Source: a bacterium
GTDB lineage: Bacteria > Elusimicrobiota > Elusimicrobia > Elusimicrobiales > UBA9959
DNA: 51,364 nt
Direction of reading: 5' to 3'
Assembly (NCBI GenBank): GCA_021811315.1
Contig: JAJZPF010000018.1
Location: 1-51,364, forward strand
Shown: piece by piece, positions 354 through 24,915 of the stretch
Numbering within the stretch: the first letter of the stretch is position 1
Layout of the letters: each line of letters begins with the position of its first letter
Program-made: the position numbers and the translations under genes
The notes under the pieces: generated by a model
What the model saw: only the letters and a program-made list of their open reading frames with translations
The model's database searches: none
What the model was told of the DNA's origin: nothing

Positions 354-535
354 CCGCGAGATGTGAAGTCGGGGGCCTGGCAAGGGTATGGGCCCGCAGG
401 GCACGGGCTCTCGCACACCGTGCTCGGCCCTCCTCTCTCGGCCTCCGCTCTTACGTAAGCTCCGGCCTCCGAGAAGGCCCTGCGAACCCATACCCTTGCC
501 ACCCCTCCGCTCAATTTATGCGTCAGCACATCTTT
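354..535 (+). repeat. Long hairpin element, copy A (CACACCGTG family)
   Basis: Perfect arms GGCAAGGGTATGGG (379-392) and CCCATACCCTTGCC (487-500) enclose an inner stem CGCAGGGC (395-402) / GCCCTGCG (477-484). Weaker outer pairing continues to AGATGTG (359-365) / CACATCT (527-533). The interior holds CACACCGTG (414-422) and a GC-rich hairpin around CTTACGTAAGC. The interior is nearly identical to the copy at 13914-14130 while the arms differ yet remain complementary. Short ORFs crossing it look spurious. The element lies between the C11 remnant and the 3' end of the convergent mltB gene. Confidence 0.8.
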
Positions 536-550
536 CGCAAATCAAGAGAT

Positions 551-714
551 CCGGGCGGAGACCGTGCCGATCGGATAAGCAAAACCCTCTCGGAGGCCGA
601 CGCTTGCGTAAGCGCGGAGGCCGAGAGCGGGAGTTGCGAGCACGGTGTGCGGGTGGCGCAGCGCCACTGCAGTGACAACGTTTTTGCGTTCCGGTCGGCA
701 CGGTATGCCGCCCG
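551..714 (-). repeat. Long hairpin element, copy B, opposite orientation
   Basis: Arms at 551-574 and 691-714 are complementary around ACCGTGCCGA(T/C)CGG, followed inward by AAGCAAAAC (577-585) pairing with GTTTTTGCGTT (680-690). CACGGTGTG at 641-649 is the reverse complement of the family core, so this copy is inverted relative to copy A and sits almost directly next to it. It carries an extra small hairpin near 653-667. The inner GCAAAAC / GTTTTGC pair is shared with the copy at 24787-24915. Confidence 0.75.
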
Positions 715-738
715 AGCAAGTATTAACTGTTTCTATTT

Positions 739-1620
739 TTACTTCTGAGCGGTCACTCTTTTTTGTATTTCGAGGCGGAGTTCGAGGATGACGTTGACGT
801 AGTTGGCGGAGTGGTTGTAGCCGTACAGGGCTTTCCAGGGGCCGGAGTTTTCGGCGAAGCCGGGTGAGGAAAAATAGTCGTGCTTGACCAGGTAGTTGGA
901 GATGCTGGCCAGGGCGTCCGGCCAGGTGAAGAGGTCGGGGTAGGCGTCGCCGTCGAAATCGGCCGCGTAAGCGTTGTAGGAAGAGGGCATGAACTGGCCC
1001 AGGCCGAAAGCGCCGGCGTAAGAGCCGAGCAGAGAGAGCGGGTCTTTCTTCCTCGAATAAGAAAGCTTCAATAATTCCGCTATCTCTTTGGACGCCCAGG
1101 CCGAGCGCCGCGGGATCCTCTCCGCGATAGTGTTCAAAGCGTTGAAAACGAGATATTTGCCTTTGTTCTCCCCGTAATTGCTCTCCACCCCGACAAGGCC
1201 GGAAAGAAGGAAAACGTCGACCCCGTACTTCTGCGAAACGGCGGCCAGGATATCTTTATTGGCCGTATAGAACTGCGCTCCGCCGGCTATTCTTTTCTCG
1301 GTCAGGAGCAGCTTCCTGTATTGTTCGTAGGTAAGGCTTTCGGCGGGCTTGTTCATCGCCGTCACTATTTCCTCGTGGATCTTCACGCGCGGGTCCGCGA
1401 AAGCCGCTTTCACATAGCCTTCCGGCACGCCCGAACCTTTAAGCGCGGCGAGAACGGCCTGGTAAACGCCGGCGGGGACGGCCTGGGCTTTATCGGCGGA
1501 AACCTGGGACCTGTCGAAGGGGGGGAAAAGGTCTCCGGCCGTCAATTCTTCGGCCCTGGCCGCGGAAGCGAAGGCCGCGAACAGGATAAGCGGCAGAAAT
1601 GTTTTGAATAAGATCTTCAC
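739..1620 (-). CDS. Lytic murein transglycosylase, MltB-like
   Basis: A 293-residue exported protein that should cleave peptidoglycan glycan strands in the periplasm, leaving 1,6-anhydro ends (GH103/SLT_2 family). A GTG at 1620 is preferred because it opens directly into a signal peptide (VKILFKTFLPLILFAAFASA, ending ARA); the frame extends upstream only as implausible sequence. The catalytic Glu is in the VESNYGENKG motif near residue 146, and the C-terminal half has the typical GAFGLGQFMPSSY and DFDGDAYPDLFTW motifs (Ca-site-like DxDGD). It is a single gene divergent from the nucleotidyltransferase-like gene; its 3' end faces the hairpin elements. Confidence 0.9.
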   Translation of the reverse strand: MKILFKTFLPLILFAAFASAARAEELTAGDLFPPFDRSQVSADKAQAVPAGVYQAVLAALKGSGVPEGYVKAAFADPRVKIHEEIVTAMNKPAESLTYEQYRKLLLTEKRIAGGAQFYTANKDILAAVSQKYGVDVFLLSGLVGVESNYGENKGKYLVFNALNTIAERIPRRSAWASKEIAELLKLSYSRKKDPLSLLGSYAGAFGLGQFMPSSYNAYAADFDGDAYPDLFTWPDALASISNYLVKHDYFSSPGFAENSGPWKALYGYNHSANYVNVILELRLEIQKRVTAQK

Positions 1621-1691
1621 ATCTATAGTGTAGCCCGCGGCCGTCAAACCTCCAAGTGCCGAAAGTCCTACTTCCTCTTCGCCAACCGCCC

Positions 1692-1720
1692 TTTACTGCC
1701 CACCCGGCATATCCTAGAAT
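1692..1720 (+). promoter_or_regulatory. Promoter, -35 TTTACT / 17 nt / -10 TAGAAT, leaderless geometry
   Basis: TTTACT (1692-1697) and TAGAAT (1715-1720) are spaced 17 nt apart. The -10 ends exactly 6 nt before the ATG at 1727, so transcription would start at or next to the start codon. No Shine-Dalgarno sequence fits in between. Confidence 0.55.
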
Positions 1721-1726
1721 CTGGTT

Positions 1727-2575
1727 ATGGATAAAGGCATAGCGGCCAGGGAGATCCTGCTCCTGGGGGCATTCGAGGAGGCGCGCGACGTCGCGCTAAA
1801 GGCCGGCATAGAGATAATACCGCTCAAAGGCGCGGCCCTCCTCGAGCTCGGCATCTACAAGGTCGGCGAACGCGGGATGAGCGACGCCGACGTGTTGCTG
1901 CGTCCGAAGGACCTTCCGCGCTTCGAAAAGATACTCCACGGGCTCCGCTACCAGCCGATGCCTAACAGCGCCGACGGCTGGCTGCGGCCGAGCCGGAACG
2001 ACGCGCCGCCGGCCATTCTTGACCTGCATACCGGCCTCTGGCACATAAAGCGCACCGAGGAACTGTTCAACTGGGGCCTCGAACCGGGCCCCGGCGGGCT
2101 CGCGCTGAACCTGGCCGACCTGTTCCTGCACGCCGCCGCCCACCCGCTGCTGCACCACGGGGAAGTCACGCCGCGCTCGCTGGAAGACTGCGCCCGCATC
2201 GCCCTGCACGCGCCGGGGGACGGGGAAAAGTTCTGGGCCGCCGTGGCCCGCAAAACGGAAATTTATAATATGCGCCCTGTGATCTGGCCGGTCATAGAGC
2301 GCCTGGCCGCCGGCCCGCTGGCGATCCCGGAGGCCGAACGGCGGGCGCTGGCGCCGCGCGGCCTGGAAAAAATAAAAGCGGCTTTCTTCGAGAAAGCCGC
2401 CAAAAAACATTCTACCGCGCTGGAATATCTGCTGCCGGTGCTGCACCGTCCCGGCTTCCTGCTTAAATACGCCGTCCCCGAAAAACATTTCATGCTGCGC
2501 CGCTACGGCGCCGCCAGCCTGGCCCTTTACCTGCTGCGCCCGCTAAGGCTGCTCCGCTCCGCCCTGAGGCGCTAG
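1727..2575 (+). CDS. Nucleotidyltransferase family protein (NTP_transf_5-like)
   Basis: 282 residues resembling the uncharacterised nucleotidyltransferase family PF14907. The N-terminal part has IIPLKGAALLELGIY followed by RGMSDADVLLRP, the K-G and S-D-x-D pattern expected for a nucleotide/metal site. The C-terminal half is helical and basic. Members often occur near polysaccharide or lantibiotic-type genes, but the substrate is unknown and the neighbours here do not reveal it. The ATG lies 6 nt after a TAGAAT box with no ribosome binding site, so it is probably translated from a leaderless mRNA. Its 3' end overlaps the convergent response-regulator gene by 33 nt. Confidence 0.7.
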   Translation: MDKGIAAREILLLGAFEEARDVALKAGIEIIPLKGAALLELGIYKVGERGMSDADVLLRPKDLPRFEKILHGLRYQPMPNSADGWLRPSRNDAPPAILDLHTGLWHIKRTEELFNWGLEPGPGGLALNLADLFLHAAAHPLLHHGEVTPRSLEDCARIALHAPGDGEKFWAAVARKTEIYNMRPVIWPVIERLAAGPLAIPEAERRALAPRGLEKIKAAFFEKAAKKHSTALEYLLPVLHRPGFLLKYAVPEKHFMLRRYGAASLALYLLRPLRLLRSALRR

Positions 2576-2947
2576 CCCGCGCACCAGCGTGTACATCTTC
2601 AGCATATTGGCCAGCCGCTCGAGGCCGGGCGGCTTCAGCACAAAATCGAAAGCGCCCTCCTTGACGGCCTTGGCCGCCATGTCCACGTTGTCCAGGCCGG
2701 TGATGAGGATGACACAGGCGTCCTTGTTCGTCTCCCGCGCTTTGAAGGAAAACTCGAGGCCGCTGGCCCCGCGCAGGTAAATATCCGCGATCACGACGTC
2801 GAAAGGTTTTTCCGCCAGGAGCGCGCGGGCTTTTTCCGCGTCGTCCAGGCGGGTAACTTCAAATTGGGGGAAAGCGGCCAGGATCTCGTCGACGCGGGCG
2901 ATGACGTAGCCCTCTTCCTCGAGGAACAGGAGCTGTTTTTTCTCCAT
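2543..2947 (-). CDS. Response regulator receiver-domain protein
   Basis: 134 residues forming a stand-alone CheY-like receiver without an output domain. Visible receiver features are an acidic cluster (FLEEEGY) near the N terminus, a putative phospho-acceptor Asp in FDVVIADIYL, the Thr in ILITGLD and the conserved Lys in FVLKPPG. The first acidic pair is Glu-Glu rather than the usual Asp-Asp. The ATG at 2947 is chosen because it overlaps the TGA of the upstream HD-GYP gene (TGATG), implying translational coupling and a shared pathway. The sensor kinase is not in the window. Confidence 0.85.
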   Translation of the reverse strand: MEKKQLLFLEEEGYVIARVDEILAAFPQFEVTRLDDAEKARALLAEKPFDVVIADIYLRGASGLEFSFKARETNKDACVILITGLDNVDMAAKAVKEGAFDFVLKPPGLERLANMLKMYTLVRGLAPQGGAEQP

Positions 2948-4290
2948 CACCACTCCACCCACCACCTGGCCATCTCGAGCCTGGCCGCGAATTTGGGGTT
3001 GCGGGCGGCCAGCTCTTTAAGGCCGATGGAGCGTTCTATCGAGGTAAGAGGGTGCTCGAAAAGGTCCAGGTGCCGCGGTGGCAGCTGCTCGAACTGGGAA
3101 TCCAGGATTATTTCCACCAGCGGCTTGGTAAGGAAGCCCTTCGTCACCCTTATCACGCGGGCGATCTCGCCGGAGGAGAGCTCCACCAGGGAACCGGGGG
3201 GATAAATTGAAACGGCGGAGAGCAGCGCCTTGATAGCCGGGGCATTGAAGCCTTTGCCTTCTTTCTCAACGAGTTCTTTGACCGTGTCGGGATGGGAGGC
3301 GGCTTCCCGCCAGGCCCGGGGATGGGTCAGCGCCTCATAGGCGTCGGCTATGCTTATGAACTGGGCGAGCGGGTCTATTTCCTCGTCCGAGAGGCGGTCG
3401 GGATAGCCGGTTCCGTCCGCGCGCTCGTGGATCTGCAGCACTATGCGCTTGGCCCGGTCCTTTATCCTGTAATCTATGTCTACTATCCGGTCCAGCTTGG
3501 CGACGCCGGCCTCGGCGTGCAGGGACATTTCCTGGAATTCTTTCTCGCCCAGGCGGTCCGAGCGGTTGTAAAGCGAAGTATATTCCGTCATGCCGATATC
3601 GTGCGCCATGGCGCAGAAGCCGAGCAGAAGGAGTTCGGACTCTTTCAGGCCGGCTTCCAGGCCCATGGCCAGCGCTATTATGGTCGTATTGGCCGTGTGG
3701 CCGCGCAAATAGTCTTCGGCGGTGGAATGATCCGTATAGCTGAAAAGAACGCTGCCGGGCTTCAGGTTTTCAATGACCAAGCGGCAGACCGACAGGACGG
3801 CCTCGTACTTTTCCGTATAGGGCTGGTCGACGCTTTTAAGGAAGGTTCCGGAGAGTTCCAGGACCCTGGCGTAAACTTCCCTGGCCCTGGCGTCGAGCTC
3901 GTTGAACGGGACGGCCGGGGCGCGGGAAAGGGCCGCGGCTTCCCTCCGGCTCCTGGGGCTTCCGGGGGCCGGCTGTTTGACCGGGGCCGGGGCATAGGAG
4001 GGGAAATAGGCCTGCAGTTCCTGCGTCAGGGCGGAAATTTCATCTTCGCGCGAGGGCGCGGCCGGCCTTTCTTTTTCACTTTTGGAGGGGGGGGCGAACC
4101 TTGAAGGTTTTTGGGTTTCCCGGGCCGGGGCTTCCTCTTTGGCGGCGGGAATGACGGGCGGTTCTGAAAAGTTGGAAGCCGCCGGGGGGGCCGGCCTCTC
4201 TTTTCTTGGAAGGGGGGCGAACCGCGCCGGTTTTTCAGGCTCCGGAGCCGGAGCTTCCTCTTTTAGTCTTTTCAGATCTGAAAAACGCAT
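2947..4290 (-). CDS. HD-GYP domain protein with repeat-bearing Pro-rich N terminus
   Basis: 447 residues. Residues 1-130 are low-complexity and contain two copies of a module of the form EEAPA-x-E-x(2)-KP-x-RFAP. The rest is an HD-GYP phosphohydrolase with the HD pair at about 230-231 (CAMAHDIGM) and HERADGTGYP at 288-297, so it could hydrolyse cyclic di-GMP; no GGDEF or EAL domain is in the window. The gene is coupled to the receiver gene downstream. A TACAAT box preceded by TGC (extended -10) ends 6 nt before the ATG, pointing to a leaderless transcript of its own despite lying only 55 nt from the upstream GNAT gene. Confidence 0.85.
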   Translation of the reverse strand: MRFSDLKRLKEEAPAPEPEKPARFAPLPRKERPAPPAASNFSEPPVIPAAKEEAPARETQKPSRFAPPSKSEKERPAAPSREDEISALTQELQAYFPSYAPAPVKQPAPGSPRSRREAAALSRAPAVPFNELDARAREVYARVLELSGTFLKSVDQPYTEKYEAVLSVCRLVIENLKPGSVLFSYTDHSTAEDYLRGHTANTTIIALAMGLEAGLKESELLLLGFCAMAHDIGMTEYTSLYNRSDRLGEKEFQEMSLHAEAGVAKLDRIVDIDYRIKDRAKRIVLQIHERADGTGYPDRLSDEEIDPLAQFISIADAYEALTHPRAWREAASHPDTVKELVEKEGKGFNAPAIKALLSAVSIYPPGSLVELSSGEIARVIRVTKGFLTKPLVEIILDSQFEQLPPRHLDLFEHPLTSIERSIGLKELAARNPKFAARLEMARWWVEW

Positions 4291-4296
4291 ATCTAG

Positions 4297-4305
4297 ATTG
4301 TAGCA
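4297..4305 (-). promoter_or_regulatory. Extended -10 (TGC-TACAAT) of the HD-GYP gene, leaderless geometry
   Basis: On the minus strand TGCTACAAT is followed by 6 nt (CTAGAT) and then the ATG at 4290. No -35 of quality is seen, as expected for an extended -10 promoter. No Shine-Dalgarno sequence lies between. Confidence 0.45.
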
Positions 4306-4345
4306 GAGGAGGGTTAAGGAAAGATTACGGAAAGATTAACTGCGG

Positions 4346-5458
4346 CTACATCTTTTTCTCGTAGATCCTGTACTTTTTGTACGGTTTCCCGCCGACCGAT
4401 TCGATAGTGTTGTTTATCAGGGTATTGTCCTCGAGGGTCCAGGACATTTCGCCGTGCTGCCAGCCCATCTTTTTGCCGGATTGCATGGCTTTGTTTATAA
4501 GGAGCATCTCGAGGCCGCGGCCGCGGAATTCTTTTTTCACTCCGAGGGTCAGCATGCGCCCGCCGCGCACCTTGAACAGCATCTTGTGGAGGAAAGGGAC
4601 GATGGTGAGGAGGTTCAGGCTGCCCCGCGCGGCTTTGAGCGGCACGTTGAAGTCCGGCAGCATCAGGCAGAAAGCTGCCGGCTTGCCGTCCACCCTGGCG
4701 AAGAACAGATAGTCGGGCTTGAGCATCGGCTTCAGCATCTTGCCCAGGTCGTCAAGCTCGGCTTCCGTCATCGGCACGAAGCCCCAGTTCTTTTCCCAGG
4801 CGGAGTTGTAGACGTCCTTGAGTTCCGCGATAGCGGCGTCCAGCTTCTTTATGTCCACGAGGTCCACGGTTATGCTCCCGCTCCTGCCGATGCGCTGGAT
4901 CAGCTTGTTGAAGCGCTCGGGCAGCCCGGCGGGGACTTCCATGTCGAAAGCCAGCAGGTCCTTGGCCTTGGCGAAGCCGGCGGCCTCGATCAGCGCCGCG
5001 TAATACGGCGGGTTGTAAGTCATCATGATCATGGGCGGGGAATCGAAACCCTCTATCAGCAGGCCGCAGGTCTCGTTGGTGGAGGGGTTGACCGGGCCGC
5101 GGATCATGTCCATGCCCTTGGCGCGCAGGTATTTCTCCGCGGCCGCGAAGAGCGCGGCGGCGGCTTCCTGGTCCTCGGAGCAGTCGAAAAAACCGAAGAA
5201 GCCGCAGTTCTCGCCGTGGAAGGAGTTGTGCGCGCTGTTCACTATGGCCGCGATCCGGCCGGCGGGCCGCCCGGAGCGGTAGGCCATGAAAAGTTTCCGC
5301 TCGCCGTGGCGCCAGAAAGGGTGGCCGAGCCCGAGCAGGTGCAGGGTGTCTTTTTTCAGTTCCCCCACCCAGTGAGGGTGGTCCTTGAAAAGGTCGTAAG
5401 GGTAGTTGATGAAGTCCGCAAGTCCGGATTCCGGCAGTTCTCTGATTTCTATGGGCAT
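4346..5458 (-). CDS. GNAT-superfamily acyltransferase, YghO-like
   Basis: 370 residues resembling YghO-type proteins (GNAT fold) with the N-terminal motif YPYDLFKDHPHWVGELK, a central IRGPVNPSTNETCGLLIEGF and the C-terminal LGVKKEFRGRGLEMLLINKA, the last matching the acyl-CoA pyrophosphate-binding loop (R-G-x-G-L/x). It follows the alpha-oxoamine synthase gene by about 113 nt on the same strand. In Caulobacter, ceramide synthesis uses a serine palmitoyltransferase and a GNAT-like N-acyltransferase, so an N-acyltransferase acting on a sphingoid-like base is a reasonable inference, not shown by sequence alone. Confidence 0.6.
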   Translation of the reverse strand: MPIEIRELPESGLADFINYPYDLFKDHPHWVGELKKDTLHLLGLGHPFWRHGERKLFMAYRSGRPAGRIAAIVNSAHNSFHGENCGFFGFFDCSEDQEAAAALFAAAEKYLRAKGMDMIRGPVNPSTNETCGLLIEGFDSPPMIMMTYNPPYYAALIEAAGFAKAKDLLAFDMEVPAGLPERFNKLIQRIGRSGSITVDLVDIKKLDAAIAELKDVYNSAWEKNWGFVPMTEAELDDLGKMLKPMLKPDYLFFARVDGKPAAFCLMLPDFNVPLKAARGSLNLLTIVPFLHKMLFKVRGGRMLTLGVKKEFRGRGLEMLLINKAMQSGKKMGWQHGEMSWTLEDNTLINNTIESVGGKPYKKYRIYEKKM

Positions 5459-5523
5459 AAATTAAATCGCTGGTCGGCTGGAGAGCCGGGCCTCTGAATG
5501 CTGCTCCTGACGGGAGTTTCTCT

Positions 5524-5567
5524 GCCGCCGCGCGGGCGCGAGCCGCCCGGCAGGCCGGCGCGGCGGC
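5524..5567. repeat. GC-rich stem-loop between the spt-like and GNAT genes
   Basis: GCCGCCGCGC (5524-5533) pairs with GCGCGGCGGC (5558-5567). There is no T-run on the minus-strand side, so it does not look like an intrinsic terminator for the minus-strand operon; it may attenuate or protect the mRNA. Confidence 0.5.
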
Positions 5568-5571
5568 GGCT

Positions 5572-6780
5572 TTATTTTACCAGGACCGCGGATTTTTTCT
5601 TCAGGATCTTCTTAACGCAGGTCTCGAAAATATCCAGGGCCCGGTCCAGCTGCTCGCGGGTGTGGGTGGCGGTGGCCACGATGCGGATGAGGGCGCGCTT
5701 CGGGGGGACGGCCGGGCTTACCACCGGGTTGGTGAAAAGCCCTCTGTCGTAAAGCATGCGCCAGAGCATGAAAGTTTTTTCGTCGTCGCCGATGACCACC
5801 GGGATGATGGGGGTCTGGGTCTCGCCGGTATTGAGCCCCATTTCCTTGAAGCGCTTCATCAGGTACCGGGAATTGTCCCAGAGCCGCTTCAGGCGCTGCG
5901 GCTCGGCGTCGATGATGTCTATGGCCTTGGAAATAGCGGCGACGGAGGCGGGCGGGAGGGCCGCGGAGAAGATCATCGAGCGGGAAACGTGCCGGAGGTA
6001 ATGGATAATATTCTCGTCGCCGGCGGCGAAGCCGCCGACCGAGGCGAAGGATTTGGAGCAGGTGCCTACGACCAGGTCCACTTCCTTGGAAGTCAGGCCG
6101 AAATGCTCGCAGGTCCCGTGGCCGCGCTTGCCTATCACGCCGCTGGCGTGGGCGTCGTCCACCATCAGGCGGGCGCCGTATTTTTTGCAGATCTTGGAGA
6201 TCTCGGGGATAGGGGCGATATCGCCTTCCATCGAGAAGACCCCGTCCACTATCACCAGCTTGCCGTGCCGGGGCCCGATCTTCTTGAGTACGCGCTCCAG
6301 GTCGGCCGGGTCATTGTGCTTGAAGCGGGCTAATTCTCCCTGTGAAAGCCTGCAGCCGTCCAGGATGCTCGCGTGGTCCAGCTTGTCTATTACCGCGAAA
6401 TCGCCTTTGCCGACCAGGGCGGAGATGACGCCGAGGTTCATCTGGTAGCCGGTCGCGTAGATAAGGGCGGCTTCCCGGCCCTTGAAAGCGGCGAGCTTCT
6501 GCTCCAGCTCCATGTGCAGGACCGTATTGCCGTTAAGGAAGCGCGACCCGGCCACGCCGGTCCCGAACTGCTTCACGGCGTCTATGGACGCCTGCTTCAT
6601 GCGGGGGTCGTTGGCCAGCCCAAGGTAATTATTGGAGCCGAACATTATGAATTTCTTGCCCTTTATGGTTATTTCAGGGGCTTGTTCGGATTCAAGCTCT
6701 TTAAAGAAAGGATAGATGCCCGAAGCCATCAATTGGCGGACGATGGTGAAGTTCCTGCATTTGGTAAAAAGGTCATTCAT
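5572..6780 (-). CDS. Alpha-oxoamine synthase (serine palmitoyltransferase / KBL-like)
   Basis: 402 residues, a complete PLP-dependent acyl-CoA:amino acid C-acyltransferase. Key features are FGSNNYLGLA, the cofactor-stacking region HASILDG, the DDAHASG Asp/His motif and the PLP Lys in GTCSKSFASVGG. The family includes KBL, BioF and bacterial serine palmitoyltransferase; the N-terminal GIYPFFKELES region and the neighbour GNAT gene favour the palmitoyltransferase branch, but no bio genes or tdh are nearby to settle it. It probably condenses an amino acid with a long-chain acyl thioester in the cytoplasm. It begins its transcription unit; the 143 nt upstream are AT-rich. Confidence 0.8.
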   Translation of the reverse strand: MNDLFTKCRNFTIVRQLMASGIYPFFKELESEQAPEITIKGKKFIMFGSNNYLGLANDPRMKQASIDAVKQFGTGVAGSRFLNGNTVLHMELEQKLAAFKGREAALIYATGYQMNLGVISALVGKGDFAVIDKLDHASILDGCRLSQGELARFKHNDPADLERVLKKIGPRHGKLVIVDGVFSMEGDIAPIPEISKICKKYGARLMVDDAHASGVIGKRGHGTCEHFGLTSKEVDLVVGTCSKSFASVGGFAAGDENIIHYLRHVSRSMIFSAALPPASVAAISKAIDIIDAEPQRLKRLWDNSRYLMKRFKEMGLNTGETQTPIIPVVIGDDEKTFMLWRMLYDRGLFTNPVVSPAVPPKRALIRIVATATHTREQLDRALDIFETCVKKILKKKSAVLVK

Positions 6781-13913: not shown

Positions 13914-14130
13914 GCGCTGAATTAAGAAAACTGAAAGACCGCGAGATGCTGAGTCGGGCAGTCAAGGGCAGGGGCCCGTCGGGCACGGGCTCTCGCACAC
14001 CGTGCTCGGCCCTCCTCCCTCGGCCTCCGCTCTTACGTAAGCTCCGGCCTCCGGGAAGGCCCGCCGAACCCCTGCCCTCGCCTGCCCTCCAAGAAGGGTC
14101 AGAAGTCTATTAACCGCTTAAATTCAGCGC
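13914..14130 (+). repeat. Long hairpin element, copy C, in the glyA upstream region
   Basis: Outermost arms GCGCTGAATTAAG (13914-13926) and CTTAAATTCAGCGC (14117-14130); main arms AGGGCAGGGG (13965-13974) and CCCCTGCCCT (14069-14078). The interior, including CACACCGTG and the CTTACGTAAGC hairpin, is almost identical to copy A, but the arm bases differ and compensate (TATGGG/CCCATA in A versus CAGGGG/CCCCTG here). It fills nearly the whole gap between glyA and the phosphatase gene, both on the minus strand. Confidence 0.8.
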
Positions 14131-18795: not shown

Positions 18796-18801
18796 AGTTT
18801 T

Positions 18802-19518
18802 ATGAAAATTTTAATTATGGTTTTGCTGGCTTGCGCGCCGGTTTCGGCGCAGTGGGGGGCTTCCGAGGGACGCGTTGCGGCCGGGCTGGTTTCTAAACGC
18901 GCGGAGACCAGCGTGATAAGCGGGGTTCCGCTGCTCGACCTGCTGGCGGCGCGCGACAAGGCCGCGGCACCTTTTACCATGGGCGGTAAGAATTTCCTGG
19001 CCTCCGTGGTGTTCGACGCGAACTGGGACAGCTGGTTCACTATCAAGCCCGCTGGCGGCGGCTTCGGGGCCGGCGCTTGGAAAGAAACGGACCTTGCGGC
19101 GGGCGCAGAATATAAGTACGGGGACCTCGTGCTGAACCTGAAAGAGACAGGCGGCCTGGTCGCCGTGGAAGCCGCGGGCGGGGAAAGAACGGAGTTCTCG
19201 GTGGACGCGCTTTTCTACCGGCTCTATAAAGACTCGATGCAGGTCACTTTCGGGGACGCCGTCACTTACGCGGTTTTCCGCAATTTGGAGCCGCTGACCG
19301 AAACCGAGGGGACCGTCACCCTGCGCGTCGGTTCGGACGGGCTTTATTATTTTTCGGTGACCCCCGACGCCCAGATCGCTTCGGCCACCCGCTGGCTGCT
19401 TGCCGTGAACGGCGTGCTTTACGGGCTTAGGATCGAAGAGGGCTCGCTTCTGTTCGTTTCAAAACCGATAGAGATGGGCAAGCCGGTTTTCGCCGCCGAG
19501 CGCTCCCGCGCGCGCTGA
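18802..19518 (+). CDS. Secreted protein of unknown function
   Basis: 238 residues. A short signal peptide (MKILIMVLLACAPVSA, cut before QWG) leads a soluble, mostly beta-rich protein with several aromatic patches (DANWDSWFTIKPAGG, LFYRLYKDSMQVTFGDAV, GLYYFSVTPDAQIA). No family is recognised. It has no paired Cys residues. It has its own extended -10 promoter with no leader and ends at a bidirectional terminator, so it appears to be monocistronic. Start confidence is high because the signal peptide begins at this ATG. Confidence 0.75.
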   Translation: MKILIMVLLACAPVSAQWGASEGRVAAGLVSKRAETSVISGVPLLDLLAARDKAAAPFTMGGKNFLASVVFDANWDSWFTIKPAGGGFGAGAWKETDLAAGAEYKYGDLVLNLKETGGLVAVEAAGGERTEFSVDALFYRLYKDSMQVTFGDAVTYAVFRNLEPLTETEGTVTLRVGSDGLYYFSVTPDAQIASATRWLLAVNGVLYGLRIEEGSLLFVSKPIEMGKPVFAAERSRAR

Positions 19519-19529
19519 GCGTACGGCAA

Positions 19530-19564
19530 AAAATGAGGGGCGCCACCTGGCGCCCCATTTTTTT
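19530..19564. terminator. Bidirectional terminator between convergent genes
   Basis: GGGGCGCC (19537-19544) pairs with GGCGCCCC (19549-19556), flanked by A-runs on the left and a T-run on the right, so it can stop both the secreted-protein gene and the minus-strand Cys-rich gene. Confidence 0.88.
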
Positions 19565-19590
19565 GCCCGAGAGAACGTTGCGGACCGTTA

Positions 19591-20121
19591 TTAAACCTTC
19601 TTCTCTTTTTCCTCGAGCTTTTCTTTTACTTTCTCCTGGCGGGCTTTGCAGCCTTCGGAGAGACCTTTGAGGTTCTTCTGCAGGCAGTCGCGCACGCGGC
19701 CTTCGCCCGGCTTCACCCCGGCGCAGAATTTCTCGCGGTCGGCGGCGCAGGCCTTGCCGGCCCCGGCGAATTTCTTCCCGTCTTTAGCCCCGAGCCCGGC
19801 CCTCATCCCGAAGCCGCGCTTGAAGCCGGAAGAGAACCCCTTCTCGTAGGCGTTGACGCAGGCGCCGCCTTTCTTATTCCCGCGTTTCCCTCCGCGCTTC
19901 TCCGCGGACAGGGCTTTGCGGTCGACGCAGGCCTGCGAGAGCTCCTTTTCATGTTCCTTAAGGCAGGCGGCCACGCGGCCCTCGCCCGGTTTCACGTCCT
20001 TGCAGAACTTCGCGGCGTCCTCGGCGCAGGGGCCTTTGCCCTTTTCCGCCGCGGCCGGCAGGTTGAGCGCCAGCCCAAGTCCCGCGCTCAGCGCGAATAC
20101 AGCTATCAATGTGTTCTTCAT
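19591..20121 (-). CDS. Secreted Cys-rich repeat protein (GLG1-type repeats)
   Basis: 176 residues with a signal peptide ending near residue 25. Two copies of a module, ACAEDAAKFC/ACAADREKFC followed by GVKPGEGRVxxCL and ending with a third Cys pair, occupy about residues 30-68 and 125-168. The C-x(7)-C-x(5)-PGEGR-x(3)-C layout resembles the cysteine-rich GLG1 repeat (PF00839) described from a Golgi receptor and from bacterial periplasmic proteins. The linker is Gly/Lys-rich and the tail strongly charged. Role unknown. The ATG at 20121 has AAAGGAGCAC upstream. Confidence 0.75.
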   Translation of the reverse strand: MKNTLIAVFALSAGLGLALNLPAAAEKGKGPCAEDAAKFCKDVKPGEGRVAACLKEHEKELSQACVDRKALSAEKRGGKRGNKKGGACVNAYEKGFSSGFKRGFGMRAGLGAKDGKKFAGAGKACAADREKFCAGVKPGEGRVRDCLQKNLKGLSEGCKARQEKVKEKLEEKEKKV

Positions 20122-20170
20122 ACAGTGCTCCTTTCTCCCGTGCACTCATACAACGCGGGAGGAGCCGGTT

Positions 20171-20527
20171 TTATTGCAGGTCTACGAAGATAGAGCCGTT
20201 TTCCGTCTTAACGGGCCAGGTCTTGAGGTCTTTCGTTGCGAGGGCGGGGTCGGCGGGATCGGGATGGGCGCTTTCCGGGGCTTTAGGGGCGGGGCCGCTC
20301 AGGGCGGAACCGCTGCGGACGTCGAACTGGGCGAAATGGAGCGGGCAGGTGAGGATCCACCCGGTGAGGGCGCCCCGCTCGAGCCGCGCTTTCGCGTGGC
20401 CGCAGGCGCGCTCCACGGCGTAGAAGGTTCCGCCGTAATTGCAGAGAACTATTTCCCGGCCGCTAAGAGCGACCGCTTTCATCCCCCCGGGGGCGATATC
20501 TTTTTCTTCGGCGGCTTTAATGTACAT
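20171..20527 (-). CDS. Rieske-type [2Fe-2S] ferredoxin
   Basis: 118 residues, soluble. The cluster ligands are C-x-H in ACGHAKARLERG and C-x2-H in LTCPLHFAQFDV; flanking IVLCNYGGTFYAV and GSALSGPA are typical of dioxygenase-type Rieske ferredoxins. A Pro/Ala-rich insertion of about 20 residues follows the second motif. It is the last gene of a minus-strand redox operon, 17 nt after the FTR-like gene. It probably carries electrons; its partner is unknown. Confidence 0.88.
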   Translation of the reverse strand: MYIKAAEEKDIAPGGMKAVALSGREIVLCNYGGTFYAVERACGHAKARLERGALTGWILTCPLHFAQFDVRSGSALSGPAPKAPESAHPDPADPALATKDLKTWPVKTENGSIFVDLQ

Positions 20528-20544
20528 ATATGGAGGAACCGCGG

Positions 20545-20886
20545 CTATTTTCTGCCGGCTTTGAATTTGCTCTCCGAGATCTGCACCAGTTTATCCGGGT
20601 CGGTGACGTCTTTGTGGACGAACAGGCCGCACCAGCAGCGCTTCATAGCGTCGTAATGTTCCCGGTGATAAGGGATGCAGGGGCAGACTATCTTCATGTT
20701 CTCCGCGCGGTCGTCGGTGCGCGCCTGGCAGGGGCAGTAAGGGATACCGGTCAGCGCCTCTATTCCCGCCTCCTGCTCCAGGAGGAAGTCGGCGTCCTCT
20801 TCGGCCGGCGTGAACTTGTAGCCCAGCTTGTCCACGAGCGGCTCGAAAAGGAAGCGGAGCGCTTTCTTGCGTTCCTGCGCGTTCAT
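20545..20886 (-). CDS. Ferredoxin-thioredoxin reductase catalytic-subunit-like protein
   Basis: 113 residues. Three Cys motifs PYCPCQART, IVCPCIPYHRE and KRCWCGLFVH match the CPC...CPC...CHC pattern of FTR catalytic subunits, which hold a [4Fe-4S] cluster beside a redox disulfide. The third motif is CWC, so the conserved His is Trp. No variable (alpha) subunit is adjacent, as in archaeal FTR. Its ATG overlaps the glutaredoxin TGA (ATGA), so the two are translationally coupled and are likely partners in disulfide reduction. Confidence 0.85.
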   Translation of the reverse strand: MNAQERKKALRFLFEPLVDKLGYKFTPAEEDADFLLEQEAGIEALTGIPYCPCQARTDDRAENMKIVCPCIPYHREHYDAMKRCWCGLFVHKDVTDPDKLVQISESKFKAGRK

Positions 20887-21134
20887 TTCTTTTCCATGAG
20901 CCGCTCGAACTCCGCCGGGTCGTAGCCCTGCGTGCAGGTCCCGCCGATCTTGATGAAAGGAAAGGAAGTGTCGCAGCCGGCGCTTTTCATCTCTTTGCGG
21001 ATCTCCGCCTGCTTTTCCGGGTCCTGCTTGTCGTAGTCCACCGCTTCGAACGGGACCTTCTTGTCTTCGAAATACTGTTTCGTCTTCCTGCACCAAAGGC
21101 AGGTGCTCAGCGCGTAGATGGTTATTTTTTTCAT
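20883..21134 (-). CDS. Glutaredoxin-like thioredoxin-fold protein
   Basis: 83 residues. The active site is STCLWCRKTK (dithiol CLWC), followed by the cis-Pro region TSFPFIKIGGTCTQGYDPAE. It begins MKKITIYALSTC at 21134, which overlaps the Rieske gene's stop. Coupling to both a Rieske protein and the FTR-like gene suggests it is the thiol protein reduced by the FTR-like enzyme. That partnership is inferred from position only. Confidence 0.88.
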   Translation of the reverse strand: MKKITIYALSTCLWCRKTKQYFEDKKVPFEAVDYDKQDPEKQAEIRKEMKSAGCDTSFPFIKIGGTCTQGYDPAEFERLMEKK

Positions 21135-21439
21135 GGTAGCCTCACAAAAACCTTTCCGTCCCTGATCTCCGCCGGGTAAGTCCTGACGGACAGCTCCGGC
21201 GCCCCGATGAACTTGCCGTCGCGCACGTCGAAGCGCCAGTCGTGGCAGGGGCACTGGAGGATATGCCCGTCGAGCTTTCCCGCCGCGAGCGGGCAGCCCA
21301 TGTGGGCGCAGCGGTTCTCCAGCGCGAAGACTTCCCCGCCGCGGCGTATCAGGAGCACCGGCAGGCCGAGCGGGAACACGGCGGAGGGTTTTCCCTCGGC
21401 CAGCCCGGCCAGCTCGGTCACTTCGCAGTTAAACGCCAT
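21131..21439 (-). CDS. Rieske [2Fe-2S] protein
   Basis: 102 residues with CAHMGCPLAAG and QCPCHDWRFDVRDG, the full Cys-His/Cys-His ligand set of a Rieske ferredoxin such as those in nitrite-reductase small subunits or dioxygenases. It is the first gene of the four-gene redox operon; the gap upstream (21440-21581) is AT-rich and shared with the divergent peptide gene. It is only distantly similar to the Rieske gene at 20171, so the pair is not a recent duplication. Confidence 0.9.
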   Translation of the reverse strand: MAFNCEVTELAGLAEGKPSAVFPLGLPVLLIRRGGEVFALENRCAHMGCPLAAGKLDGHILQCPCHDWRFDVRDGKFIGAPELSVRTYPAEIRDGKVFVRLP

Positions 21440-21517
21440 TTTTTGATTATATAAAAAACGCGGCGCGCATAATCCCGCGAAAAAATTTAAAAAAACGAAA
21501 ATAATTAAAAATAACTA

Positions 21518-21546
21518 TTGCATTATATTGAAACAATAGATAAAAT
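21518..21546 (+). promoter_or_regulatory. Strong promoter TTGCAT / 17 nt / TAAAAT of the Lys/Ala peptide
   Basis: TTGCAT (21518-21523) and TAAAAT (21541-21546) are 17 nt apart in AT-rich DNA, matching the promoter of the basic repeat protein at 18382. Transcription would start near 21553, about 29 nt before the ATG. Confidence 0.75.
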
Positions 21547-21581
21547 CAATTCACAGCGCAAAGGCGCAAGGAGAAAAAACA

Positions 21582-21650
21582 ATGGCCGCTAAAAAGAAAG
21601 CTGTAAAGAAAGTTGCGAAGAAAACCGTAAAGAAAGCGAAGAAGAAATAG
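21582..21650 (+). CDS. 22-residue Lys/Ala-rich peptide, histone-tail-like
   Basis: A complete tiny gene: AAGGAG (21568-21573), 8 nt, then ATG, 22 codons and TAG. The product has 12 Lys, 5 Ala, 3 Val, 1 Thr and the initiator Met, in the K-K-x-A/V-K-K pattern of histone H1 tails and of AlgP/Hc1-type bacterial proteins. It should bind DNA or RNA or another polyanion. It is flanked by its own promoter and terminator, so it is very probably expressed on purpose. It is too short for most gene finders. No enzyme or antitoxin partner is adjacent. Confidence 0.75.
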   Translation: MAAKKKAVKKVAKKTVKKAKKK

Positions 21651-21668
21651 TTCGTTTCTTACGTCGGA

Positions 21669-21717
21669 AGGCGGCACCAGGGCGCGGTTCAAAGGCCTTC
21701 GGTGCCGCCTCTGTTTT
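21669..21717 (+). terminator. Terminator of the Lys/Ala peptide gene
   Basis: AGGCGGCACC (21669-21678) pairs perfectly with GGTGCCGCCT (21701-21710) around a 22-nt loop that can fold further, followed by CTGTTTT. Confidence 0.75.
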
Positions 21718-21777
21718 AGGCGGAAAAAAACAGCCGCTTCCCCTCCCCCGAAAAAACTTTTTAGATTTATAAAAAAA

Positions 21778-21826
21778 CCGGCGCGCGAAATCGCGCGCTA
21801 AAAAACGCCGGCGGATATTTTTTATT
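21778..21826 (+). terminator. Second terminator-like hairpin upstream of pxpB
   Basis: CCGGCG (21778-21783) pairs with CGCCGG (21806-21811), enclosing the nested stem GCGCGCG-AAAT-CGCGCGC, and is followed by GATATTTTTTATT. The rest of the 21718-21947 gap is GC-rich with further self-complementary GCGCCGGC stretches and an AT-rich block (TTTATTATATATATCC) just before pxpB that probably holds its -10. Confidence 0.55.
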
Positions 21827-21947
21827 CCCGGCCCGGCGGCCTGGCGGGCGCCGGCCGCGTCCCGGATCGCGCCGCGCGCGGCGCCGGCCGCCGTTCTCCG
21901 ACGGGGGGACTGGCGAAACCGCCCGTTTATTATATATATCCTTTAAT

Positions 21948-22601
21948 ATGCCGCAAGCGAACAAAACATACCGGACCTATTTCCTGGGCGACGCCTGCCT
22001 CTGCTGGGAGCTGGGCGGCGCGATAAACAGGCTCACTTCCCTGCAGGTGCTCTACGTCTTCCGGCAGCTCAGGAAAGACCCCGCGCTCGCGCGCCTCGGC
22101 GCGCACGACGTGGTCCCGTCCTATACCGCGCTCGCGGTCCACGCGCACCCGCTCTGCGACTGGGAGGCCGTGCGCCGCCTGGTGAACGCCTGCCTCGCCG
22201 CCATGCCCGCCGACGAGGCCCGGCTGAAAGAGCGCTCCGCGCTGCACGTGCTGCCGGTCGCCTATACCGGCGAGGACCTGCCGCGCGTGGCCGGCCGTGC
22301 CGGGATCACCGTCGAAGAGGTCATCCGCCGCCACACGGCCCCGGAATATCTTGTGGCCATGATAGGCTTCCGCCCGCACTTCCCCTACCTGCTCGGCCTG
22401 GACCGCAGCCTGGTCATGCCGCGCCTGGACTCGCCGCGCGCGGCCGTCCCCGCGGGCGCGGTGGCCATAGGCGGAGAGCAGACCGGGATCTACCCGGAAA
22501 CCTCGCCCGGCGGCTGGAATATCCTCGGCATGACCTCCCCCGAGCTGCTCTACTCCATCGAGCCCGGCGACTCCGTGGTCTTCAGGAGGGCCGAAGCATG
22601 A
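21948..22601 (+). CDS. pxpB: 5-oxoprolinase subunit B (KipI-like)
   Basis: 217 residues of the allophanate hydrolase subunit 1 / KipI family. Typical motifs are VPSYTALAVHAHPL, the LHVLPVAYTGEDLPRVA block and FRPHFPYLLGLD, ending in the IGGEQTGIYPETSPGGWNIL segment of the cyclophilin-like domain. With PxpA and PxpC it hydrolyses 5-oxoproline to glutamate using ATP. Its TGA overlaps the ATG of the PxpA-PxpC fusion (ATGA), so subunits are made together. No Shine-Dalgarno sequence is obvious; the AT-rich box TATATAT lies 8 nt before the ATG. Confidence 0.9.
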   Translation: MPQANKTYRTYFLGDACLCWELGGAINRLTSLQVLYVFRQLRKDPALARLGAHDVVPSYTALAVHAHPLCDWEAVRRLVNACLAAMPADEARLKERSALHVLPVAYTGEDLPRVAGRAGITVEEVIRRHTAPEYLVAMIGFRPHFPYLLGLDRSLVMPRLDSPRAAVPAGAVAIGGEQTGIYPETSPGGWNILGMTSPELLYSIEPGDSVVFRRAEA

Positions 22602-24166
22602 TCCAGATAAACTGCGATATCGGGGAGAAGGGCCCCCTGCACGAGGGGGACCGCAAGCTGATGGAGTTCGTCCACATAGCCAACCTGGCCTGCGACGGCC
22701 ACGCCGGGGACTGGGAAAGCGTGGAAGCTTTCCGCGCCCTGGCCGCGCAGCGCGGCGTGGGCGTGTCGGCCCACCTGTCCTACCCGGACAAGGCCAATTT
22801 CGGGCGGGCCAGCATGGCCATGCCGGAGGCCGACCTGCTGGCCGCGCTGGACGCGCAGTTAGCCCTGCTGCCCGGCGTGAAGCTGGTGAAGTTCCACGGC
22901 GCGCTTTATAACGACGCCTGGCGGGACGCCCGCCTGGCCGAATCGCTGGCCGGCTGGCTGATGCGCGCCGGGATAAGCGGCGTGCTGGCCCCGGCCGACT
23001 CCGAGCTGGCCGCCGCCGCGCGCCGGCTGGGCATAACCGTGCTGCGGGAAGCTTTCGCGGACCGCCGCTACGCCTGGGACGAGGAAGGCGGCCGCCTGCG
23101 CCTGGCCTCCCGCGCCGAAGCCGACGCCGCGATCTCCGGCGTGGAAGAAGCCCTGGCCCAGGCAGAGGAGATAAGGCGCGGCCGCGTGAACGTCAGCGGC
23201 GACCCCGCCAGGCCCGACTGGCGCGAGATAAAGGCCGACACCGTCTGCATCCACTCCGACTCGCCGATAGCCCTGGAGCTGGCCGCAGCCCTGCGCGCGG
23301 CGCTCGACGCCGCCGAGAAAGCCGCGGCCGCCGCCGGGGTCAGGGGAAATATCCGCCTGGTGAAATCCGGCTTTTGCGGCACCGCCGGCCTCCCGGTCTA
23401 CGGCAGGCAGCACCTGGCCGTCACTCCGGGCGGCGCGATGGACTGCTTTTCGCTGCGCCGCGGCAATTTGATGCTTGGCAATCCCGAGGGCAGCCAGGCG
23501 CTGGAAATAGTCGGCCCCCCGGAGATAGAGATCCTGACTCCCGGCCGTTTCGTCCTGACCGGCGCCAAGCTGGAGGCCTTCCTGCGCCGAGGCGCGGGCG
23601 AACCGGCCGCGGTGGAGCACAGCCGCGTCTACGAGGCTGAAGCCGGGGACAGGCTTACTTTCGGCGAGAAGCGCTACGGTCTTTACACCTATTTCTGCTT
23701 CAGGGGCCGCGCGGGCGGCGGCCGGGCGCCGGAAGAGGCCGTGCCTTTCTCGGCTGTGAACGGCTGGGCCGACCCGCAGGGCCGCATCCGCGTCCTGCCG
23801 GGCCCGGAATACGGCTCTCTGAAAGATCCCGAACAATTCTTCTTTACCCAGTGGCATACCACTTTCAAGATGGACAAGATGGGGATGCGCCTGGCCGGCG
23901 AGCCCGGCCTGAAGTGCGACCTTGGGAATATGGTCTCCGCCGCCGTGGCCGACGGGACCGTGCAGCTGACGCCGGACGGCCCTATCGTCCTGCTCCGCCA
24001 CCGCCAGACCACGGGCGGCTACCCGCGGATCTTCAACGTCATCTCCGCCGACATAGACCTGCTGGGCCAGTACGGCCCGAACCAGCAGATCCATTTCGTC
24101 CAGGTTACGCTGGAAGAAGCCGTCGAAGCCGCGCGGCAGAAAGAGAAAGCGCTCGGGCATGCATAA
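22598..24166 (+). CDS. pxpA-pxpC: Fused 5-oxoprolinase subunits A and C
   Basis: 522 residues in one frame. Residues 1-245 are a LamB/YcsF (PxpA) domain: INCDIGE, IANLACDGHAGD, SAHLSYPDKANFGRA and VKFHGALYN. These deviate from the usual ACGFHAGD and GAHPSYPD motifs. Residues 252-520 are a PxpC (allophanate hydrolase subunit 2 / KipA) domain with GRQHLAVTPGGAMDCFSLR, GNPEGSQALEI and LRHRQTTGGYPRI. Separate genes or PxpB-PxpC fusions are the arrangements I know; A-C fusion is unusual. It is coupled to pxpB and overlaps trhA by 8 nt. The junction has no linker of note, which argues against an assembly artefact. Confidence 0.85.
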   Translation: MIQINCDIGEKGPLHEGDRKLMEFVHIANLACDGHAGDWESVEAFRALAAQRGVGVSAHLSYPDKANFGRASMAMPEADLLAALDAQLALLPGVKLVKFHGALYNDAWRDARLAESLAGWLMRAGISGVLAPADSELAAAARRLGITVLREAFADRRYAWDEEGGRLRLASRAEADAAISGVEEALAQAEEIRRGRVNVSGDPARPDWREIKADTVCIHSDSPIALELAAALRAALDAAEKAAAAAGVRGNIRLVKSGFCGTAGLPVYGRQHLAVTPGGAMDCFSLRRGNLMLGNPEGSQALEIVGPPEIEILTPGRFVLTGAKLEAFLRRGAGEPAAVEHSRVYEAEAGDRLTFGEKRYGLYTYFCFRGRAGGGRAPEEAVPFSAVNGWADPQGRIRVLPGPEYGSLKDPEQFFFTQWHTTFKMDKMGMRLAGEPGLKCDLGNMVSAAVADGTVQLTPDGPIVLLRHRQTTGGYPRIFNVISADIDLLGQYGPNQQIHFVQVTLEEAVEAARQKEKALGHA

Positions 24167-24776
24167 AAAAGAATTCGTCAACACTTTGACCCACACCGCG
24201 GGCGCCGCGCTGGCTTTGGCCGGCCTGGTCGTGCTGGTCGTGAAAGCCTCGCTCAGGGGCGACGCCTGGCATATAGTGAGCTTCAGCATCTACGGCGTCA
24301 CCCTGCTCCTGCTCTACTCTTCCTCCGCGCTTTACCACGCCGCGCACCAGGGGCGCCTGAAAAGTATCCTGCGCATGGTGGACCACCAGGCGATCTATCT
24401 CCTGATAGCCGGGACTTACACCCCGTTCACTTTGGTGACGCTGCGCGGGGTCTGGGGCTGGTCGCTGTTCGTCGTGGTCTGGGTCCTCGCCGTTTTCGGC
24501 ATAGTGCTGGACTCCCTGCACAAGAAAGGGCACAGGATAGCGCAGCTTATTATTTACCTGATGATGGGCTGGATGATAATACTGGCGCTCGGGCCGCTCG
24601 CGCGGGCCCTGCCTTTCTGGGGGCTGGCCTGGCTGATGATCGGGGGCTTGTTCTACACCTCGGGCGTGATCTTCTACATTATGGACGATCTCTACCCGCA
24701 CTACCACGGCATCTGGCACCTCTTCGTCCTCGCCGGCAGCCTCTCCCACTACTTCGCTATACTTTTTTACATCTAA
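24159..24776 (+). CDS. trhA: TrhA/hemolysin III family membrane protein
   Basis: 205 residues with seven predicted membrane helices. Conserved PAQR-type residues are seen in SSALYHAAHQGRLK near helix 2, LRMVDHQAIYLLIAGTYTPF and the C-terminal HGIWHLFVLAGSLSHYFAI, whose His residues form the putative metal site with the early Ser/His. Bacterial members are linked to membrane energetics or hydrolase activity; earlier hemolysin naming is doubtful. It overlaps the oxoprolinase gene by 8 nt, so all three are one operon ending before a hairpin element. Confidence 0.88.
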   Translation: MHKKEFVNTLTHTAGAALALAGLVVLVVKASLRGDAWHIVSFSIYGVTLLLLYSSSALYHAAHQGRLKSILRMVDHQAIYLLIAGTYTPFTLVTLRGVWGWSLFVVVWVLAVFGIVLDSLHKKGHRIAQLIIYLMMGWMIILALGPLARALPFWGLAWLMIGGLFYTSGVIFYIMDDLYPHYHGIWHLFVLAGSLSHYFAILFYI

Positions 24777-24786
24777 ATATTCACAA

Positions 24787-24915
24787 GGGGCAGCGCGCGG
24801 GCCGGAACGCAAAACGCGTTCGGCCACACCGTGGCCTCACTCCGTGTTCGCCCGCCGGGCTATGCAACCGGCGGGCTCTCCGAGGGTTTTGCTAACCCGG
24901 CCCACGCGCTGCCCC
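24787..24915 (+). repeat. Long hairpin element, copy D
   Basis: Arms GGGGCAGCGCGCGGGCCGG (24787-24805) and CCGGCCCACGCGCTGCCCC (24897-24915) pair with one mismatch. Inside are AACGCAAAACG (24806-24816) facing GGGTTTTGCTAA (24885-24895), CACACCGTG (24825-24833) and a hairpin CGCCCGCCGG...CCGGCGGGC. It sits between convergent trhA and the AAA ATPase gene, where it could also act as a bidirectional terminator, but it has no T-run. Confidence 0.78.

What the first reader, a model, noticed from the sequence alone, without database searches (positions are those of the whole stretch)
354..24915. A family of long hairpin elements with covarying arms and a shared CACACCGTG core
Four copies (354-535, 551-714 inverted, 13914-14130, 24787-24915) fold as long inverted repeats. 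Arms differ in sequence among copies yet pair within each copy (GGGTATGGG/CCCATACCC, AGGGCAGGGG/CCCCTGCCCT, ACCGTGCCGA.., GGGGCAGCGC..). An inner stem also swaps as a unit: CGCAGGGC/GCCCTGCG in A, GCAAAAC/GTTTTGC in B and D. CACACCGTG and a downstream GC hairpin are kept. Compensatory change is the signature of selection on structure, either as RNA or as hairpin DNA, or of arm-to-arm repair. No transposase was found nearby.
Basis: partly seen in the sequence, partly recalled or inferred. Interest (0 to 1): 0.85.

Follow-up and report, generated by a model that had tools for sequence, protein, structure and literature searches.

The report
Hairpin repeats that swap their cores
This bacterium carries about ninety copies of a folded, non-coding DNA hairpin, mostly just behind its genes; the arms of each copy match each other but differ from copy to copy, and a related species often has a different centre in the same place, which suggests DNA that is inherited partly as a shape.

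Summary
The four copies belong to a family with 91 merged places in this 63%-complete Elusimicrobiota genome, found in all 31 same-genus relatives searched and, by covariance model, in four other genera of the family. Each copy is a branched hairpin: a two-hairpin core with fixed loops on arms that pair within a copy but differ between copies (82% of arm positions paired within copies, 54% when re-dealt among copies). Fourteen copies with one identical 95-nt core carry 11 distinct 5' arms. At orthologous places in a ~90%-identical species, 5 of 21 cores are conserved, 16 changed or replaced, two of these inverted; six more elements are missing. Copies are intergenic, usually behind a gene's 3' end, without strand bias. 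G.U pairs are almost absent (15 of 2,248 cells), which favours DNA-level over RNA-level pairing. No Y1/RAYT-type or reverse transcriptase gene goes with them. Best reading: REP-like hairpin repeats whose cores move by template switching or conversion and whose arms are kept complementary by arm-to-arm copying. The mechanism is inferred.

The parts
354..509 (+). Copy A: frame F1 (5' part about 354-379, 3' part about 500-509), variable outer arms 380-392/487-499, inner stem 395-402/477-484, hairpin 1 about 405-430 with loop ACC in CACACCGTG 414-422, hairpin 2 about 433-475
   Evidence: Sequence, fold of 380-502, MFE -68.6 kcal/mol, z -6.81, inverted repeat I3
510..550 (.). Linker between the two facing elements A and B; ends partly complementary (by eye)
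   Evidence: Sequence; facing pairs 15-113 bp apart recur in 13 G000 pairs
551..714 (-). Copy B, facing copy A: frame F2, arms around 561-575/691-706, core with CACACCGTG 641-649 and an extra mini-hairpin about 651-676
   Evidence: Sequence, fold z -4.95, inverted repeat I6; 61 matches in the genome at E<=0.01, overlapping pieces included
13914..14130 (+). Copy C: outer inverted repeat 13914-13926/14117-14130, frame F1 about 13936-13957, arms and stems 13956-13984/14059-14087, CACACCGTG 13996-14004; insert absent in G019 and G014, same frame with another core in G012
   Evidence: empty sites; G012
24787..24915 (+). Copy D: unframed type, arms about 24787-24805/24897-24915, core GGAACGCAAAAC..GGTTTTGCTAACC with CACACCGTG 24825-24833; between two convergent genes; shared with G019
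   Evidence: fold z -7.10

Best explanation
These are non-coding, non-autonomous, hairpin-forming repetitive extragenic elements, REP- or MITE-like in behaviour, that live mostly behind gene 3' ends. Each has (1) a conserved core of two short hairpins (loops ACC and AYGCA-like) on an inner stem, and (2) long arms, often inside a longer frame, that must pair but whose sequence is free. Shown: family, structure, covariation, different cores at orthologous sites, inverted cores, presence and absence of whole elements, nesting. Inferred: hairpins stall or break replication; synthesis or repair then switches template. A switch to the sister arm copies one arm into the other, which keeps arms complementary and can invert the core. 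A switch to another hairpin in the genome copies in a foreign core, or nests one hairpin in another. No enzyme of their own is needed in this model. Pairs of elements facing each other are a standard unit.
For: 91 places, none more than half covered by a called gene. Arms pair within copies 0.823 against 0.543 (sd 0.015) when re-dealt among 44 copies; 35 G000-only copies give 0.824 against 0.547. 14 copies with an identical 95-nt core have 11 distinct 18-nt 5' arms, some of them only one or two bases apart. 19 of 30 pairs have two-sided changes, 321 two-sided cells, 0 of 500 shuffles as high; sliding the partner by 1-3 columns destroys it. Only 15 G.T cells of 2,248, none in 1,348 core cells, and A.C (37) is not rarer than G.T, as expected if pairing is set at DNA level on both strands. 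Orthologous places: 21 element pairs, 5 with cores at about 95-100%, 16 at 90% or less or only partly alignable although flanks are 75-98%; two of the 16 lie inverted. Site b: G000, G014 and G012 share outer arms CGGTTCCG/CGGAACCG (G012 with one change) but differ in inner arms and core; G014's core is of another type. In another family (G290, a weak match) two hairpins share a core but not arms, and a third shares arms with one of them but not the core. Template switching between inverted repeats is reported to homogenise arms and to invert spacers (PMC8604942, abstract and passages).
Against: A conserved C.T mismatch 12 bp out in 18 of 44 unframed copies, fixed internal loops and a fixed apical loop would be erased by arm-to-arm copying alone, so something also selects the shape. 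All true close pairs are convergent, 13 of 13 in G000 and 11 of 11 among 150 listed places of other genomes, which random template switching does not predict. Spread to about 90 sites and an end of pairing about 20 bp from the core look like a defined mobile unit. Some arm changes between orthologues or between copies with identical cores are one-sided (A.C or G.T intermediates), so ordinary mutation also acts. No donor and recipient pair was traced. G019 stretches were mostly chosen because they hold copies, and only 20 of 60 sites tested found an orthologous stretch, so the rate of empty sites is not measured.
Confidence: 0.47

Rival explanations
1. Non-autonomous transposable hairpins moved in trans by a recombinase or transposase that reads shape rather than sequence in single-stranded DNA, as integron integrase or Y1 HUH enzymes do (recalled); the conserved mismatch or bulge marks the exchange point.
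For: Copy number; facing-pair unit in several genera; element present in G000 and G012 but not in G019 and G014 at site C; pair absent at site 3 in G019 and at site 1 in G019 and G022; conserved C.T mismatch near the border between shared outer and differing inner arms at site b; a bulged C in both G290 copies.
Against: Y1_Tnp has no match in 5 of 32 same-genus genomes, own included, that have the element (G003, G016, G024, G026, G031; some are incomplete) and is present in genera without it; 11 Y1 loci (2 of G000, 1 of G019, 8 of other genomes) show no element, only chance-level matches at E 0.05-0.18; RVT_1 has no match in G000 and G019; no target-site duplication was recognised; four intervals of about 1-1.6 kb between elements hold no gene with a transposase domain in Pfam (ORF6N, CopG antitoxin and four genes without a match). 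Other recombinase families were not searched.
Confidence: 0.28
2. A structured RNA, such as a 3'-UTR or terminator element, kept by selection on RNA folding.
For: Strong covariation, constant loops, position a median 25 nt behind the upstream gene (36 of 45 tandem sites nearer the 3' end), terminator-like hairpins at the same place in relatives at site a.
Against: Same and opposite orientation to tandem genes 26 and 28; cores inverted at two orthologous sites; nearly no G.U pairs, though RNA families commonly use them (recalled; no control could be made); no Rfam match at gathering score in the window.
Confidence: 0.2
3. Decayed ends of a known insertion sequence.
For: Dispersed inverted repeats; some elements lie 1-1.6 kb apart.
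Against: Many D-type cores are 97-100% identical within and between genomes, elements are complete hairpins rather than ends, intervals between them carry no transposase.
Confidence: 0.03
4. Assembly artefact of repeated sequence in metagenome bins.
For: The bin is 63% complete and 18 of 91 places lie within 200 bp of a contig end.
Against: The family is found in all 31 same-genus genomes searched; misjoined cores would break arm pairing, but arms pair.
Confidence: 0.02

Closest known systems
REP/BIME/REPIN repetitive extragenic palindromes (GTAG and CGTC families; PMC3733652, abstract start and passages)
   Same: Intergenic dispersed palindromes, often as dimers mostly 20-100 bp apart, some with complementary spacer ends, some inserted in larger palindromes; many copies; suspected non-autonomous mobility.
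   Different: REPs are 20-40 bp with a terminal tag; here a ~95-nt two-hairpin core plus ~20-bp arms without conserved sequence, no tag at the ends, no link to Y1/RAYT genes.
Double-hairpin elements and GC clusters of organelle DNA (search listing; two passages of PMC2800124; compensatory changes in them are recalled)
   Same: Mobile-looking non-coding hairpins; some with two hairpins per element.
   Different: Organelle genomes; exchange of core and arms was not mentioned in what I saw.
Borrelia plasmid intergenic stem-loops (PMC2674063, passages)
   Same: Stem-loops just behind genes with two-sided compensatory changes, compared by the authors with MITEs.
   Different: Short stem-loops, interpreted as RNA; no core exchange in the passages seen.
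Integron attC sites (recalled)
   Same: Sequence-free, structure-conserved inverted repeats with unpaired marker bases.
   Different: No cassette array, no conserved end boxes; integrase not searched for.

Membership tests
REP/REPIN (GTAG or CGTC) | Short palindrome (20-40 bp) with terminal GTAG/CGTC tag | tested here: not met
   Arms about 20 bp on a ~95-nt core; positions beyond the arms are unconserved (5' entropy 1.6-2.0 bits at idx 20-25)
REP/REPIN (GTAG or CGTC) | Associated RAYT (Y1 HUH) gene (GTAG families) | tested here: not met
   27 of 32 same-genus genomes have a Y1_Tnp match, 5 do not; no element at 11 Y1 loci
REP/REPIN (GTAG or CGTC) | Extragenic position and dimer organisation | tested here: met
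   0 of 91 more than half inside a called gene; 13 convergent pairs
MITE | Non-coding, terminal inverted repeats, multi-copy | tested here: met
MITE | Terminal repeats shared between copies and with a parent transposon | tested here: not met
   Arm and end sequences differ between unframed copies; no parent found among the genes looked at
MITE | Target-site duplication | tested here: inconclusive
   None recognised by eye in the few empty-site comparisons; intergenic flanks have diverged
Structured RNA family of Rfam | Score at or above a family's gathering threshold | tested here: not met
   0 matches in the window
Integron attC | Conserved boxes at the ends and cassette arrays | tested here: not met
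   No conserved ends, dispersed single sites and pairs; feature definition recalled
Integron attC | Recombined by an IntI integrase | not tested
   No search for integrases was made
Functional RNA | Transcribed from a fixed strand | not testable with these tools
   No RNA data; orientation to tandem genes 26 same, 28 opposite

The most novel reading that the evidence does not exclude
A class of mobile DNA whose hereditary unit is a small two-hairpin core plus a structural rule (be self-complementary, keep one mismatch) rather than a sequence: cores home from hairpin to hairpin, replace or nest in what is there, sometimes flip, and take on the arms of the place where they land, in at least five genera of one bacterial family and perhaps beyond it.
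Probability: 0.27. Interest if true: 0.87.

Novelty: new variant of a known kind. Interest (0 to 1): 0.7.

Why it matters
Covariation is normally read as evidence of a conserved RNA. Here strong covariation goes with core exchange, core inversion, no strand bias and almost no G.U pairs, so the family is a natural test of how DNA-level arm-to-arm copying can imitate RNA covariation, and of how hairpins spread without a recognised transposase. Contigs of this genome often stop at copies (18 of 91 places within 200 bp of an end). The genus offers many orthologous sites on which hairpin-stimulated template switching could be measured.

Tried and rejected
RAYT/REP: Y1_Tnp searched in 61 genomes; not co-distributed, and no element at 11 Y1 loci. 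Reverse transcriptase: PF00078 in 61 genomes, no match in G000 and G019. Genes between elements about 1-1.6 kb apart in four intervals: six ORFs scanned with Pfam, one ORF6N, one CopG antitoxin, four without a match. Insertion into a pre-existing hairpin: supported only in part. Site 2 has a bare hairpin in G014 (by eye) and site a has terminator-like hairpins in G014 and G012 and another long hairpin in G019 (by eye), but at site b and site C the species without the element have neither arm. Arms copied from target DNA: no arm was seen at these empty sites. In G000:C42:15920 the 3' side looks copied from a D-type 5' arm; a search for other such copies found none. tRNA control for G.U use: only 7 tRNA calls in the stretches held, so no control was made. 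Literature: searches for Elusimicrobia with palindromic repeats or MITEs, and for hairpin or MITE elements with compensatory change or gene conversion, listed no report of this family by title and abstract start; most subscription papers are not held.
Full report
What was checked. The window's four copies are real: each folds with z-scores of -4.64 to -7.10 against dinucleotide shuffles, 0 of 200 shuffles as good, and together they hold the only CACACCGTG motifs of the window, 4 against 0.12 expected. The window is contig C3 of a 2.67-Mb, 48-contig, 63%-complete genome. A 522-aa window protein is 93% identical to an Elusimicrobiales metagenome contig, 91% to another, and 64-79% to 16 more contigs in the same listing, most titled Elusimicrobia.

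Size of the family. blastn with copies A, D and B gives 91 merged places, a few of them pieces of one element; 18 lie within 200 bp of a contig end. With the D core, 32 of 61 genomes match: own, 31 of 31 same-genus relatives, 0 of 5 of other genera of the family, 0 of 24 of another family of the order. A covariance model from 75 cores reaches further: 36 of 294 phylum genomes, namely 23 of the own genus including own, 12 genomes of genera g3, g10, g12 and g13 in the same family, and one weak match (E 5e-5) in another family; 12 listed same-family genomes have none. Only 12 candidates per genome were scored there, so copy numbers are lower bounds. In ten of the non-genus carriers 1 to 43 places per genome reach E<=0.01.

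Anatomy. From outside to inside: an optional frame (F1 CCGCGAGATG..AGTCGGGG / CCCCTCCG, or F2 GGCTGGGCGG / CCGCCCAG), variable arms, a fixed internal loop (GG-AAC-GC / GC-TAA-CC in the D type), an inner stem (GCAAAAC/GTTTTGC in B and D, other sequences in A and C), then hairpin 1 with loop ACC and hairpin 2 with an AYGCA-type loop. In 44 copies classed as unframed, from G000 and G019, pairing runs to about 20 bp from the core and then drops to background; position 12 is a C.T mismatch in 18 of 44, between better-paired neighbours (82% and 93%). A few of the 44 are really framed copies that my rule missed; 4 of 83 rows were dropped because an arm was cut by a contig end. Extra mini-hairpins are nested in hairpin 1, hairpin 2 or the frame of some copies.

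Arms vary but pair. Within the 44 copies 82.3% of arm positions pair; re-dealing the 3' arms among copies gives 54.3% (sd 1.5, maximum 59.8 in 2,000); 35 G000-only copies give 82.4 against 54.7; 35 framed copies 94.0 against 74.1. On the 75-sequence alignment 97.0% of cells pair against 80.2% in shuffles, 19 of 30 pairs have two-sided changes, with 321 such cells against 98, 0 of 500 shuffles as high, and sliding the partner by 1 to 3 columns brings the score from 0.383 to at most 0.077. The rows are related copies, so these are not independent events, and the alignment was picked by a D/B-type pattern.

DNA rather than RNA. In the same cells there are 2,166 Watson-Crick, 15 G.T, 37 A.C and 30 other; in the core helices 0 G.T of 1,348. 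A.C outnumbers G.T (p 0.003; 15 against 22, not significant, without one column). On the opposite strand A.C reads as G.U, so an RNA from that strand is not excluded by this alone, but the core has only 2 A.C cells. I recall that RNA helices commonly hold a good share of G.U; a control could not be made. Orientation to tandem neighbours is 26 same and 28 opposite.

Position. None of 91 places is more than half covered by a called gene (a simple codon-usage caller trained on the window). Of 77 merged sites, 57 have both neighbours called: 45 tandem, 8 convergent, 4 divergent. In tandem sites the median distance is 25 nt to the 3' end of the upstream gene and 82 nt to the next start; 36 of 45 are nearer the 3' end.

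Facing pairs. Of 14 neighbouring pairs within 300 bp in G000, 13 are convergent and one is a single element split by an insert; 11 of 11 such pairs among 150 listed places of other genomes are convergent too (more places were not listed). Window copies A and B are such a pair.

Exchange of cores. 14 copies share an identical 95-nt core but have 11 distinct 18-nt 5' arms, some one or two bases apart and others unrelated. G019 is about 90% identical to the window's genome. Of 77 sites, 60 had flanks long enough, and for 20 (27 elements) an orthologous interval was found in the G019 stretches held. Six elements are absent: C3:13939, C8:120677, both of the C8:129326 pair, C39:67149, and C39:64581, where another hairpin stands. 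Of the 21 present in both, 5 cores are about 95-100% identical, and 16 are at 90% or less or only partly alignable; two of these lie inverted (C8:124007, C36:24630). Two of the 16 (C1:6107, C8:131648) are close to their flanks in identity and may be ordinary divergence. Alignments of 11 regions are. At site b, behind the same stop codon, G000, G014 and G012 share outer arms but have different inner arms and cores (G014's of another type, G012's related to G000's with a nested mini-hairpin), while G019 and G022 have the two genes abutting. At site C, G012 has the same frame with another core (10 of its bases are N), G019 and G014 have nothing. At site 3, G014, G012, G022 and G027 hold other hairpins, some in the same frame. 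At site 2 G019 and G022 hold the core in the other orientation, G014 has a bare hairpin. In G290, of another family, two hairpins share a core with quite different AT-rich arms, and a third shares arms with the first but has another core; the model match there is weak, so kinship with the main family is uncertain.

Mechanism. No helper gene was found among those looked for. Template switching between inverted repeats homogenises arms and can invert the spacer (PMC8604942, abstract and passages); quasipalindromes are mutation hot spots by a template-switch route in E. coli (PMC7202029, abstract start only). Extending the switch to a second hairpin elsewhere would copy in a foreign core. This joins arm pairing, inversion, core exchange and nesting in one process, but leaves the conserved mismatch, the fixed loops and the strict facing pairs to be explained by selection on shape or by an unknown enzyme. 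I give this 0.47, a trans-acting recombinase 0.28, an RNA 0.2.

Known relatives. REP dimers resemble the facing pairs, some with complementary spacer ends, and some REP dimers sit in larger palindromes (PMC3733652, passages), but REPs are 20-40 bp with a terminal tag (abstract start), and neither tag nor RAYT link is met here. Borrelia plasmid stem-loops behind genes show two-sided changes (PMC2674063, passages). Organelle double-hairpin elements are the closest in name (listing; two passages of PMC2800124). I found no report of this family in the searches made. I rate it a new variant of the repetitive extragenic palindrome kind.

Noticed in passing
window 34-88: Another long imperfect hairpin near the contig end, GAGCATGGGT..ACCCATGCTC with inner TACGAGATACC pairing, not of this core type (read).
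   Followed up: no
window 45502-45602; also near G000:C14:101851 and C36:1: A second palindromic motif, around CCCGACAAGGGC..TGTCGGG, that turns up in several loci.
   Followed up: no
site 3 in L163, L164 and L166 (printed): Other species hold a different hairpin type there (with GGAAACCC..GGTTTCC inside), in G014 and G012 inside an F1-like frame, so the frame accepts more than one kind of core.
   Followed up: partly
L098 8520-10366 (G000:C39): A 1.85-kb stretch between two facing elements, with an ORF6N-domain gene, is missing as a block from G019.
   Followed up: partly
L252, L260, L286 (G290): A genome of another family has a few hairpins of a similar plan with AT-rich arms; two share a core, two share arms.
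   Followed up: partly
G000:C42:15920-16032: A C-type core sits in what looks like the 5' half of a D-type element, and the 3' side is nearly the complement of that half (one mismatch) instead of the usual D-type 3' half.
   Followed up: partly
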